Made by a program: the position numbers and the translations under genes
Notes under the pieces: model-generated
The model's input: the letters and a program-made list of their open reading frames with translations, nothing else
The model's database searches: none
Told to the model about the DNA's origin: nothing
Shown here: piece after piece, positions 14,646-18,280 of the stretch
Layout of the letters: each line of letters begins with the position of its first letter
How positions within the stretch are numbered: position 1 is the stretch's first letter
DNA from: Thalassospiraceae bacterium LMO-JJ14
Lineage (GTDB): Bacteria > Pseudomonadota > Alphaproteobacteria > Rhodospirillales > Casp-alpha2
Length of the DNA stretch: 64,000 nucleotides
Direction: 5' to 3'
Assembly (NCBI GenBank): GCA_021555105.2
Contig: CP134604.1
Coordinates: 1,054,001 to 1,118,000, forward strand

Positions 14646-16730
14646 ATGAAGGATCTTATCGGACGGGCGTTTGATTTTAAAACTATCCGCTTATTATCGA
14701 AACTCTTAGTAAATGTAATACTGCTATTTTTCCTGCCTTTCATCGGCAATGCGTTAGCCCAAAGCCCACTTGAAAACAAAGTCAATCTGACCCCCTCAGA
14801 AGAAGCATGGCTGGCGGAACACTCAAAAATACGATTAGCCATCGATGTTAACTGGGCGCCGTTCGAATTCGTTGATGATCAGAAGCAATATCGGGGCATG
14901 GCTGCTGAATACATCCGTTTAGTCGAAAACCGCCTTGGTATTGAATTGGAAATCGATAAAGAACGGCCCTGGCCGAAGATGGTAGAAGCGGTCAAAAATC
15001 GCGAACTCGATGCTTTTTCCCTGGTTGTCAGAACCCCTCAAAGAGATGAATTCGTTAACTTCACTCGACCTTATATTTCATTTCCTATGGTCATCGTGAC
15101 GCAGGAAAACCAACCGTACATTGACGGTATTGAGCCCCTAAATACCAAGAGTGTTGGTGTTGTTAGAAGCTACGCCTCCCATGACTTGCTGGCTGCAAAC
15201 CACCCAGAACTTGACCTGCGGCTTGCAGATAACGTCCGCAAGGGCCTGGAAGCGGTTTCAAATGGAGAGACTTACGCGTTTGTTGGTAACCTGGCGGTCG
15301 TTGGCCATGTCATAGAATCAACAGGTCTCAGCAACCTCAAGATATCCGGTCAAACCCCGTATCGCTTTGAGCTTAGCATGGCAGTTCGCAACGATTGGCC
15401 CGAGCTTATCCCTATACTGCAAAAAGCTTTGGATTCAATAACCGCGGATGAACGCAGAGCCATTCTCGGTCGATGGATTCAGGTGAAGTATCAAAATGAG
15501 GTCGATTATACACTGGCCATATTGATAATCGTCATAGCATCGGTGATCATTCTTGCAATTTATGGATGGAACAAAAAACTTCGGCGCGAAATCGAACATC
15601 GCCAGAAGGCAGAGAAAGCACTGAAAGCTAGTGAGCAAAAATACCGTGCAATATTTACCTCCTCAAATGTCGGTCTGGCATTGTGTAAAATGGACGGAGC
15701 CTTGCTGGAGGTGAACCAGGGATTTTCTGATATCCTTGGAAGAACTAAAACCGACACGCTTCAACTCTCATACTGGGATATCACACCACGTGAGTATGAA
15801 CTTCAAGAAAAAGAGCAGTTGGCATCCCTGCATGAGCGAGGAACTTACGGTCCTTATGAGAAAGAGTACATACGTGCAGATGGCACAAGGGTTCCTGTTC
15901 TATTAAACGGTTCATTGGTTCTCGGCGATGACGGCGAACCGCTCATATGGTCGATTGTACAAGATATATCCGGTCGAAAAAAAGCGGAGGAACAAATCGA
16001 ATTAGCTTTGGCAAATGCCGAAGTAGCCAGCAAGGCGAAGTCAGAATTCTTGGCAAGTATGAGCCATGAGTTGCGAACACCGATGAACGCAGTTCTAGGG
16101 TACGCCCAAATGCTGAAATTAGACCTCGATAAAAATTTATTGTCTACGCAACACGATTATATCGCGTCAATTATTGATGGGGGCAATCATCTGCTGTCAT
16201 TGATAAATCAGGTGCTGGATTTGGCCAGCATCGAGGCAGGGGTTGTTGAGCTAAAGATCGAGAAAACATCGGCCAAAAAATGCATAGCAGAAGCCATTGG
16301 CATGATAATGCCGATGGCACAAAAGCGCAGCATCCGGATTGAAGATGGATTTAGTGCTCAGCCTGAAGTGTTCTTGCTCGCTGACCACATCCGGTTACAT
16401 CAGGTGCTTCTTAATCTGCTTTCTAACGCGGTTAAATTCAATAAACCGGATGGTACAGTTACGCTTTTTCAAGGTGAATGCAAAAGCGGCTTTTTGCGAA
16501 TTTGCATTGAAGATACAGGGATTGGTATTTCCGAGAGAGATTGTTTGGAAATTTTCCAAATGTTTCATCGAATTAATTCGGATCCTATGCAGCCAAGTGA
16601 AGGAACAGGCATCGGGCTCGCGGTCACCAAAGATCTGGTCGAAAAAATGAATGGTGAGATCGGGTTGAAAAGCGAATTAGGGATTGGCACAATTTTTTGG
16701 TTTGACCTGCCAGTAGCGCCGTTGACGTGA
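14646..16730 (+). CDS. BvgS/EvgS-like hybrid-type sensor histidine kinase with periplasmic SBP_bac_3 domain
   Basis: A 694-residue membrane sensor. Order: signal or membrane segment (residues 14-38), periplasmic amino-acid-binding-protein-like SBP_bac_3 domain (about 52-275), one transmembrane helix (289-309), PAS with PAC (about 328-448), HisKA with phospho-accepting H474 in SHELRTPMNAVLGYA, and HATPase_c with DTGIG (623-627) and GTGIGL. There is no receiver or HPt domain and no response regulator beside it, so it is an orphan. Base composition is clearly more AT-rich than all neighbours up to the ABC-F gene, suggesting transfer. An IS element begins about 17 bp after its stop and may have separated it from a partner. 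Confidence 0.9.
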   Translation: MKDLIGRAFDFKTIRLLSKLLVNVILLFFLPFIGNALAQSPLENKVNLTPSEEAWLAEHSKIRLAIDVNWAPFEFVDDQKQYRGMAAEYIRLVENRLGIELEIDKERPWPKMVEAVKNRELDAFSLVVRTPQRDEFVNFTRPYISFPMVIVTQENQPYIDGIEPLNTKSVGVVRSYASHDLLAANHPELDLRLADNVRKGLEAVSNGETYAFVGNLAVVGHVIESTGLSNLKISGQTPYRFELSMAVRNDWPELIPILQKALDSITADERRAILGRWIQVKYQNEVDYTLAILIIVIASVIILAIYGWNKKLRREIEHRQKAEKALKASEQKYRAIFTSSNVGLALCKMDGALLEVNQGFSDILGRTKTDTLQLSYWDITPREYELQEKEQLASLHERGTYGPYEKEYIRADGTRVPVLLNGSLVLGDDGEPLIWSIVQDISGRKKAEEQIELALANAEVASKAKSEFLASMSHELRTPMNAVLGYAQMLKLDLDKNLLSTQHDYIASIIDGGNHLLSLINQVLDLASIEAGVVELKIEKTSAKKCIAEAIGMIMPMAQKRSIRIEDGFSAQPEVFLLADHIRLHQVLLNLLSNAVKFNKPDGTVTLFQGECKSGFLRICIEDTGIGISERDCLEIFQMFHRINSDPMQPSEGTGIGLAVTKDLVEKMNGEIGLKSELGIGTIFWFDLPVAPLT

Positions 16731-16749
16731 GATTTCTAAATGACTGCTA

Positions 16750-16828
16750 ATGGGATGGACCGGCTGCTCCACTGAAGTGGCAGGTTAATGTTTCACATTA
16801 CCTGCAAGAGCAAGGAGCAGCATCCCAT
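16750..16828 (+). promoter_or_regulatory. Long hairpin covering the left end, RBS and start codon of the transposase
   Basis: The 15 bases at 16814-16828, which contain the ribosome binding site (GGAGCAGC) and the first two bases of the ATG, are complementary to ATGGGATG (16750-16757) plus GCTGCTCC (16763-16770), with a 5-base bulge. Inside is a second stem, CAGGTTAATGT against ACATTACCTG (16781-16804). A transcript entering from the upstream kinase gene would fold and hide the start; a transcript starting inside the left end would not carry the 5' arm. Confidence 0.6.
16755..16768 (+). repeat. Left subterminal inverted repeat of the IS
   Basis: ATGGACCGGCTGCT is the exact reverse complement of 18103-18116. 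Subterminal rather than terminal repeats distinguish the IS1111 subgroup from other IS110 elements. Confidence 0.85.
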
Positions 16829-17882
16829 GACAAAGACATCAACTGCATCTGTTACCGTTGTTGGCATCGATATCGGCAAGGACGTGTTTCACTTAGTCGG
16901 CTTTGATGCCGTCGGCACGGTCGTTCTGCGGCGGAAGATCAAGCGTTTAGCGCTTGAGACGGAGTTCAAGAAGCTCCCATCATGTATCGTCGGCATGGAG
17001 GCGTGTCTTAGCGCTCACTTTGTTAGCCGGACACTGCGGACGCTGGGCTTCGAGCCGCGTATCATTCCCGCCAAATACACGAAGCCGTTCGTCAAAGGTC
17101 AGAAGAACGACTTCAATGATGCGGAAGCCATTGCAGAGGCAGCACTTCGCCCAAACCTCAATCTTGTCCAGGAAAAGACACAGGATCAGCTCGATCTGCA
17201 GGCACTGCATCGTGTCCGCTCTCGGTTGGTCTCTCGTCGAACGGCCACGATCAATCAGATCCGTGCCTTCCTGATCGAGCAGGGCATCGCCGTTCGATCC
17301 GGTGCCCATGCGCTTCGTAAATCTCTCTTTCCTATCCTGCAGAACCGAGCGGATGAGATATCACCGCGCCTGAGCGCGATCATCGTCGGTCTTTATGAGG
17401 ATTGGTTGTGGCTGGATGAACGTATCGAAAGTACGACCAACGAGATCGAGATGATCAGCAAACGTGAAGGACATTGCCAGCGTCTGATGACGATACCCGG
17501 GATCGGGCCGATGATATCTACGGCGATGGTCGCGGCGGTTGGCACTGGCGAAGCCTTTGAGCGAGGCAGGGACTTTGGTGCCTGGCTCGGCCTTGTGCCA
17601 CGCCAGTACAGCACCGGCGGCAGGCCAATCCTCGGACGGATATCAAAACGGGGTAGTAAATATCTGCGAAGTCTGTTCGTGCAGGCAGCTCATATTATCC
17701 TGATGCGGCCAAAGAACTGGGACAGGTTTAGCTTCGGGCCCTGGCTCGAACAGGCATCGGAGAGGATGCACAAAAACAAACTGGCCGTGGCGCTGGCGAA
17801 TAAGCCCGCCCGTATTGCCTGGAGCGTTCTCAGAAACGACCAAGACTTCGACGCAACCAAGATTGAGGTAGAGGCCATCTGA
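16827..17882 (+). CDS. IS110-family transposase (IS1111 group, DEDD recombinase)
   Basis: A 351-residue recombinase starting MTKTSTASVTVVGIDIGKDV. The N-terminal RuvC-like DEDD domain shows D15 (GIDIGKD), E58 (VGMEAC), D95 and D98 (KNDFNDAEAIAEA). The C-terminal Transposase_20 domain contains the HhH-like TIPGIGPMISTAMVAAVG and the conserved LGLVPRQYSTGGRPILGRISKRG region with the candidate catalytic serine, followed by LRSLFVQAA. The frame is intact and full length, so the element may be active. The ATG at 16827 is preferred: it has a GGAGCAGC site, which lies inside a hairpin. It works with an RNA guide in current IS110 models. Confidence 0.95.
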   Translation: MTKTSTASVTVVGIDIGKDVFHLVGFDAVGTVVLRRKIKRLALETEFKKLPSCIVGMEACLSAHFVSRTLRTLGFEPRIIPAKYTKPFVKGQKNDFNDAEAIAEAALRPNLNLVQEKTQDQLDLQALHRVRSRLVSRRTATINQIRAFLIEQGIAVRSGAHALRKSLFPILQNRADEISPRLSAIIVGLYEDWLWLDERIESTTNEIEMISKREGHCQRLMTIPGIGPMISTAMVAAVGTGEAFERGRDFGAWLGLVPRQYSTGGRPILGRISKRGSKYLRSLFVQAAHIILMRPKNWDRFSFGPWLEQASERMHKNKLAVALANKPARIAWSVLRNDQDFDATKIEVEAI

Positions 17883-17904
17883 GCCAACGCCTCCCGGTAC
17901 TCGC

Positions 17905-18025
17905 GATTGAGATGACTGCATGGAACGGATCAAGAAACGCACCCGAAGCCTGATGACCCAAATGACCGCTCGCCGGTCGGTCCGCTAATGAGGCAAATGG
18001 CGCGTGCGTATTCCCATCAAGGCCA
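17905..18025 (+). ncRNA. Candidate bridge RNA (seekRNA) of the IS element
   Basis: The non-coding right end carries two target guides. ATGACTGCAT (17912-17921) equals the top strand of the left target (16740-16747) continued into the right flank. TGACCCAAATG (17954-17964) is the exact reverse complement of the right flank at 18118-18128. Orientation (first guide same-strand, second complementary) and their small overlap at the junction match the target-binding loop of IS110-family bridge RNAs. Tentative donor guides follow: GGTCCGCTAATG (17979-17990) resembles the joined right and left ends, and TCCCAT (18012-18017) complements the left end. RNA ends are approximate. Confidence 0.7.
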
Positions 18026-18102
18026 CAGCCCGCGTGCCGATCAAACAGGCCGGATACATATCAGCGACTTCCGAAATCTAGCAGAAATTCTCTATTGCGA
18101 TC

Positions 18103-18116
18103 AGCAGCCGGTCCAT
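18103..18116 (-). repeat. Right subterminal inverted repeat of the IS
   Basis: AGCAGCCGGTCCAT, exact inverse of 16755-16768. It is followed almost at once by the right target flank. Confidence 0.85.
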
Positions 18117-18248
18117 ACATTTGGGTCAGACCCAGACTTTACCCGCCTTGCCATCCTCTGTCTGCTTCCGGAACTTCAGCGGACGGGAAAGTCTCAGTTT
18201 GAAATCAGGACAGCATTGACACGGTATCGCATCCGTTCCTTCCTCCTG

Positions 18249-18254
18249 TATAAT
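18249..18254 (+). promoter_or_regulatory. Possible -10 box of the small hypothetical gene
   Basis: A perfect TATAAT lies 27 bp before the ATG at 18281. A perfect TTGACA occurs at 18216-18221, but 27 bp away, which is too far for a standard promoter. Only the -10 box is suggestive. Confidence 0.3.
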
Positions 18255-18280
18255 GCTGAACGGAAAGCATAGGAGGGCGT

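What the first reader, a model, noticed from the sequence alone, without database searches (positions are those of the whole stretch)
17905..18128. Bridge-RNA guides matching both flanks of an IS1111-type element
The downstream non-coding region carries ATGACTGCAT, identical to the left target and its continuation, and TGACCCAAATG, exact reverse complement of the right flank. Joining the flanks gives ATGACTGCATTTGGGTCA, fully covered by the two guides (10 and 11 nt, overlapping by 3). Opposite polarity of the guides is what the IS110 bridge-RNA model predicts. A chance match of this length at both sides in one short region is very unlikely.
Basis: partly seen in the sequence, partly recalled or inferred. 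Interest (0 to 1): 0.85.

Follow-up and report, generated by a model that had tools for sequence, protein, structure and literature searches.

The report
Jumping gene with RNA address label

Summary
Window 16748-18119 is a complete 1,372-bp IS1111-group insertion sequence: a DEDD transposase, a 14-bp subterminal repeat pair, 7-bp and 3-bp end extensions, and a downstream non-coding region. It is the only copy in its genome.

TGACCCAAA (17954-17962) is the reverse complement of the right flank, and across 33 dereplicated relatives this segment tracks each element's own right flank (z 8.05, 0/1000 permutations).

The left guide is misassigned. ATGACTGCAT (17912-17921) recurs unchanged in relatives with different left flanks, shows only background association, and is an 8-nt match of a kind expected in 1-2% of random tests. 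The left guide is GTCCGC (17980-17985), 3' of the right guide (z 7.5, 0/1000).

A covarying structure holds a target loop with both target guides and a second loop matching the element's own ends. A model built from this clade finds the same RNA in IS5075.

New member of a known kind. RNA expression and activity are untested.

The parts
16740..16747 (+). Left half of the insertion site, ATGACTGC; its last 6 bases match the left guide at 4 of 6
16748..16754 (+). Left 7-base extension of the element, TAATGGG
   Evidence: same length and nearly same sequence in all relatives with both repeats
16755..16768 (+). Left subterminal inverted repeat ATGGACCGGCTGCT
   Evidence: perfect 14-bp pair with 18103-18116
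16827..17882 (+). IS1111-group DEDD transposase, 351 aa
   Evidence: Pfam DEDD_Tnp_IS110 and Transposase_20; ISCro4 and IS621 chains in PDB; motif GLVPRQYSTG in translation
17901..17912 (+). 5' strand of the closing stem of the RNA
   Evidence: pairs with 18089-18100; 87% of cells paired
17912..17921 (+).
   Evidence: unchanged in relatives with other flanks, background association
17937..18005 (+). Target arm: stems 17937-17940/18002-18005 and 17948-17950/17992-17994 around the target loop
   Evidence: 95-99% paired with two-sided changes
17954..17962 (+). Right target guide TGACCCAAA, reverse complement of right flank 18120-18128
   Evidence: covaries with right flanks, z 8.05, 0/1000; L072 retargeting
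17964..17978 (+). Hairpin between the two target guides
   Evidence: two pairs with 11-12 two-sided changes among 32 sequences
17980..17985 (+). Left target guide GTCCGC, same sense as the left flank, followed by TAATG (17986-17990) as in the left end
   Evidence: covaries with left flanks, z 7.53, 0/1000; per position
18006..18065 (+). Second (donor) arm of the RNA, with hairpin 18021-18051
   Evidence: 98-99% paired, some two-sided changes
18012..18017 (+). Candidate donor guide TCCCAT, complementary to left end ATGGGA (16750-16755)
   Evidence: co-change in L027, L051, L054, L059; exceptions L030, L056
18054..18060 (+). Candidate donor guide ATACATA, equal to the joined ends ATACA|TA (18115-18119 and 16748-16749)
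   Evidence: IS5075 has ATAGAT here with right extension AGA
18089..18100 (+). 3' strand of the closing stem; contains TTGCGA (18095-18100), the -35-like box of the circle-junction promoter
   Evidence: TTGNNN-17 bp-CATAAT or close variant in 33/33 joined ends
18103..18116 (+). Right subterminal inverted repeat AGCAGCCGGTCCAT
18117..18119 (+). Right 3-base extension ACA, end of the element
18120..18128 (+). Right half of the insertion site, TTTGGGTCA

Best explanation
A single-copy IS1111-group insertion sequence whose downstream non-coding region specifies a bridge RNA (seekRNA). Shown by comparison: in the target loop, 17954-17962 matches the right flank as its reverse complement and 17980-17985 matches the left flank in the same sense, with a covarying hairpin between them, and both segments change together with the flanks across relatives. 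Less strongly supported: a second loop (18012-18017 and 18054-18060) matches the element's own joined ends. Inferred from the published mechanism: the transposase-RNA complex circularises the element, the joined ends form a promoter, and the RNA pairs with a GTCCGC|TTTGGGTCA-like site so that the circle inserts there in one orientation without a target duplication. In this genome it sits at GACTGC|TTTGGGTCA, two mismatches from the programmed site, of which the genome holds no copy within one mismatch.
For: Complete IS1111 anatomy. Unsupervised column scan finds one left and one right guide position, both 0/1000 permutations. Co-changes in single elements, including both guides at once in L072. 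Covarying structure, 94.6% paired against 28-38% when slid. Model trained on this clade finds IS5075 with target and donor segments in register. Junction promoter in 33/33. Guide order agrees with experimental IS1111 seekRNAs (PMC11187229). No programmed site within one mismatch in the genome.
Against: No transcript, binding or transposition data. The element's own left flank matches the left guide only 4 of 6, while it matches 17912-17919 8 of 8. Only one copy here, so no internal replicate. No uninterrupted version of this very site was found. Donor-guide co-change has exceptions.
Confidence: 0.9

Rival explanations
1. One reading: ATGACTGCAT at 17912 is the left guide, 5' of the right guide, as in IS110/IS621.
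For: Exact 8-nt match to this element's left flank, better than the 4 of 6 of GTCCGC.
Against: Segment unchanged in relatives with other left flanks and only background association; order opposite to IS1111 seekRNAs; not in the target loop; chance 1-2% and similar coincidences in L013 and L024.
Confidence: 0.04
2. Insertion is set by protein-DNA recognition or a fixed preferred repeat, and the matching segments in the non-coding region are not guides.
For: Many relatives sit in similar GTCCGC|NNTGGGTCA sites, part of which look like a dispersed palindromic motif.
Against: Elements with unusual flanks carry matching unusual segments at the same two columns (L006, L011, L012, L013, L020; L072); permuting flanks removes the match.
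Confidence: 0.03
3. The architecture is as described but this copy is an inactive relic whose left flank has drifted since insertion, so its present flanks say little about target choice.
For: Single copy; left flank 4 of 6.
Against: Intact transposase frame, repeats, structure and right-flank match; 4 of 6 or fewer is seen in 19 of 59 elements.
Confidence: 0.25

Closest known systems
IS1111-family seekRNA elements ISEc11, ISPa11, ISKpn4, ISPst6 (PMC11187229)
   Same: Subterminal repeats with 7- and 3-base extensions, downstream non-coding region, target matches with the top-strand-pairing segment 5' of the bottom-strand-pairing one, circle-junction promoter.
   Different: Different target sequence and clade; here guides are assigned by comparison, not by purified RNA; second-loop guides proposed here were not part of their short seekRNA.
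IS5075/IS4321 (IS1111 group, target in Tn21-family ends)
   Same: Found by the covariance model built from this clade (E 1.9e-6) with target and donor segments in register; same 7- and 3-base extensions.
   Different: Transposase about 37% identical; different target; its left guide continues into the target rather than into the element's left end.
IS110 group, IS621 and ISCro4 bridge RNA recombinases (PMC11208160)
   Same: Related transposase (PDB 8wt6, 9t56); RNA with a target loop and a donor loop.
   Different: Bridge RNA lies upstream of the gene in most IS110-group members, the guide order is reversed and long subterminal repeats are absent.
Bradyrhizobium erythrophlei GAS478 multi-copy relative (L067 group)
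   Same: Same guides and same kind of site at more than a dozen places.
   Different: 56-57% identical transposase; repeats differ.

Membership tests
IS1111 group insertion sequence | DEDD transposase with C-terminal PF02371 domain and GL-P----S/TG motif | tested here: met
   Both Pfam domains above cut-off; GLVPRQYSTG in the translation
IS1111 group insertion sequence | Long subterminal inverted repeats with 7-bp left and 3-bp right extensions | tested here: met
   14-bp perfect pair, TAATGGG and ACA
IS1111 group insertion sequence | Longer non-coding region downstream of the transposase gene | tested here: met
   17883-18102 downstream against 16769-16826 upstream
IS1111 group insertion sequence | No target duplication | tested here: inconclusive
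   Zero-spacer joins fit relatives and IS5075; no empty version of this very site; two interrupted frames in relatives suggest other lengths
IS1111 group insertion sequence | Circle with junction promoter | tested here: inconclusive
   Promoter-like sequence in 33/33 joined ends; circle itself not observed
IS1111 seekRNA | Two target-matching segments, top-strand-pairing one 5' | tested here: met
   17954-17962 then 17980-17985, both covarying with flanks
IS1111 seekRNA | RNA co-purifies with transposase and is needed for transposition | not testable with these tools
   needs experiment
Bridge RNA (two loops, target and donor) | Second loop with guides to both element ends | tested here: inconclusive
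   Loop structure supported; donor-guide co-change in four elements with two exceptions and IS5075, but the ends hardly vary
IS110 group proper (IS621-like) | Bridge RNA upstream of the gene with the opposite guide order | tested here: not met
   RNA is downstream and order is the IS1111 one

The most novel reading that the evidence does not exclude
In this clade the left target guide runs directly into the element's own left end (GTCCGC+TAATG against left flank+TAATG), giving up to 11 nt of match to the left junction of an inserted copy but only about 6-7 nt to an empty target. The same guide could therefore read inserted copies, for excision, more strongly than empty targets, unlike IS5075, whose left guide runs on into the target.
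Probability: 0.2. Interest if true: 0.5.

Novelty: new member of a known kind. Interest (0 to 1): 0.33.

Why it matters
Programmable RNA-guided transposases of this group are being developed as genome-editing tools, and correct guide assignment is the starting point. This clade gives a comparison-based map of both target guides and candidate donor guides, with a natural retargeting case (L072). It also shows that flank matching in a single element can pick the wrong guide.

Tried and rejected
Other copies in the own genome: none by DNA, protein or RNA model. An uninterrupted version of this site in 48 genomes of the family: none. Rfam: nothing at E up to 1. Folding this one sequence alone was not informative (z -1.4). 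RNAalifold pairs between 17920-17929 and the right repeat were not trusted, because the repeat varies between subclades while that segment does not.

Full report
Observation. ATGACTGCAT is at 17912-17921 and TGACCCAAATG at 17954-17964. CATTTGGGTCA, its reverse complement, is at 18118-18128. The left flank ATGACTGC is at 16740-16747. The left match is 8 nt; the next two bases of the 17912 segment (AT) are not in the left flank.

The element. A perfect 14-bp repeat pair, ATGGACCGGCTGCT (16755-16768) and AGCAGCCGGTCCAT (18103-18116), frames the gene. Outside it lie 7 bases (TAATGGG) on the left and 3 (ACA) on the right, so the element is 1,372 bp, 16748-18119. The transposase (16827-17882) has the DEDD and Transposase_20 domains and matches solved ISCro4 and IS621 chains. 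It is the only copy in its 3.89-Mb genome by DNA, protein and RNA model. It lies 17 bp after the stop codon of a sensor histidine kinase gene (14646-16730) and interrupts no gene that I can see.

Relatives. A protein search gave 80 related loci. Including the window, 48 elements have both repeats with the same anatomy, and the left extension is TAATGGG or a one-base variant in all of them. I aligned their non-coding regions and scanned every column for the ability to predict each element's own flanks, against permuted flanks, in 33 dereplicated elements. The left flank is predicted by one place, GTCCGC at 17980-17985 (z 7.53, 0/1000; next column 3.77). The right flank is predicted as reverse complement by one place, 17955-17962 (z 8.05, 0/1000; next 2.98 over both orientations). 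Clear cases are L011 (GGCGGCAAA against TTTGCCGCC), L020 (GCAGAGAAA against TTTCTCTGC), L006 (GGTAA) and L013 (TTCCGA). The permutation test does not remove shared ancestry, but the two peaks stand far above all other columns, which share the same ancestry.

Segment 17912-17919 scores 3.64 of 8 against left flanks, with a null of 3.33 (p 0.012; 0.029 without this element), within the range of unrelated columns. It is identical in L008, L012, L016 and L024, whose left flanks end GTCCGC or TTCTGC. An 8-nt suffix match to some place in the non-coding region occurs for 1.2% of random window 8-mers and 1.8% of mismatched pairs. L024 and L013 show matches of the same length at unrelated places. I conclude coincidence. 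This element's own left flank, GACTGC, matches the left guide at 4 of 6; 19 of 59 elements have 4 or fewer, though that automatic count includes a few wrong guide calls.

Independent tests. In Bradyrhizobium erythrophlei GAS478, more than a dozen copies of a 56-57%-identical relative sit at different places. Their left flanks mostly end in CCG plus one base and their right flanks contain GGGTC, in keeping with their guides GTCCG and GACCC. Bradyrhizobium L072 carries changed guides (GACCTTAAT and TGTAGAC) and correspondingly changed flanks (ATTAAGGTC and CTAGAC). A same-genus element (L003) has left flank GTCCGC.

Junction. IS5075 served as a yardstick. Joining its flanks with no spacer gives a sequence found intact at 100% identity in many plasmids. 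L053's joined flanks match Bradyrhizobium plasmids over 36 nt across the junction, and an intact ATGTCCGCTTTGGGTCATT lies near L008. Interrupted reading frames in relatives gave other lengths, and right-flank length varies by a base in some relatives, so the exact exchange point is less certain for those.

RNA architecture. The consensus structure has a target arm holding the two target guides on either side of a hairpin (17964-17978), and a second arm (18006-18065) with two segments matching the element's own ends on either side of another hairpin; I added a closing stem by eye (17901-17912 with 18089-18100). Counting pairs on 32 sequences gives 94.6% paired against 28-38% when slid by 1-3 columns, and 12 pairs with changes on both sides. 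The closing stem is the weakest helix (87%). A covariance model of the two arms finds the RNA in relatives not used to build it and in IS5075 at E 1.9e-6, with the target and donor segments in register. Rfam has no such family.

Donor guides. TCCCAT (18012-18017) is complementary to the left end ATGGGA, and ATACATA (18054-18060) equals the joined ends ATACA|TA. In L027, L051, L054 and L059, whose left end differs at base 7, the first segment changes to match; L030 and L056 do not fit. IS5075, with right extension AGA, has ATAGAT in the aligned loop. This is supportive but not conclusive. Joining the ends also creates TTGNNN-17 bp-CATAAT (or a one-base variant) in 33 of 33 elements, like the junction promoter reported for ISEc11 (PMC11187229).

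Comparison with what is known. Four IS1111 elements have been shown to make seekRNAs that match both target strands, with the top-strand-pairing segment 5' and the order reversed in IS110 (PMC11187229). Bridge RNAs were predicted in 93% of IS1111 elements, with possible donor-binding nucleotides (PMC11208160). This element is therefore a new member of a known kind.

Target in this genome. The programmed site GTCCGCTTTGGGTCA has no copy within one mismatch and nine with two, against ten for the reversed control. The occupied site has two mismatches, both in the left half. By my arithmetic a random position reaches that level with a probability of about 9 in 10 million. Either the element took an imperfect site, or the flank has changed since insertion.

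Shown: anatomy, guide-flank covariation, structure. Inferred: transcription, RNA binding, activity and the donor-guide role.

Noticed in passing
L037 and L044, right end of the element: The right junction carries one (L037) or two (L044) extra copies of TACA before the flank (ACA-TACATTGGG, ACA-TACATACATTGGG), as if the right end had slipped or been re-used.
   Followed up: no
L018 3001-5106; L066; L028: In L018 the transposase and its RNA are about 900 bases apart with a weak second model match between them; L066 and L028 are similarly irregular, suggesting insertions or tandem remnants inside the element.
   Followed up: no
L042 right flank: The right flank itself contains a repeat-like ATGTACCGGCTGCC and the left extension begins CAATGGG, so this copy's ends are irregular; it interrupts a peptidase-like reading frame.
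   Followed up: partly
L008 near 5300; flanks of L005, L014, L053: The preferred site (ATGTCCGC|TTTGGGTCATTAGCGGA) looks like part of a short palindromic motif with TCCGC and GCGGA arms, possibly a dispersed REP-like repeat of alphaproteobacteria.
   Followed up: partly
window 17988-18272 +: A 94-aa reading frame runs across the RNA and the right end of the element; no Pfam match, most likely spurious.
   Followed up: yes
window 17920-17929: Invariant ATGGAACGGA in the RNA resembles the left repeat ATGGACCGG but does not change with it between subclades; role unexplained.
   Followed up: no
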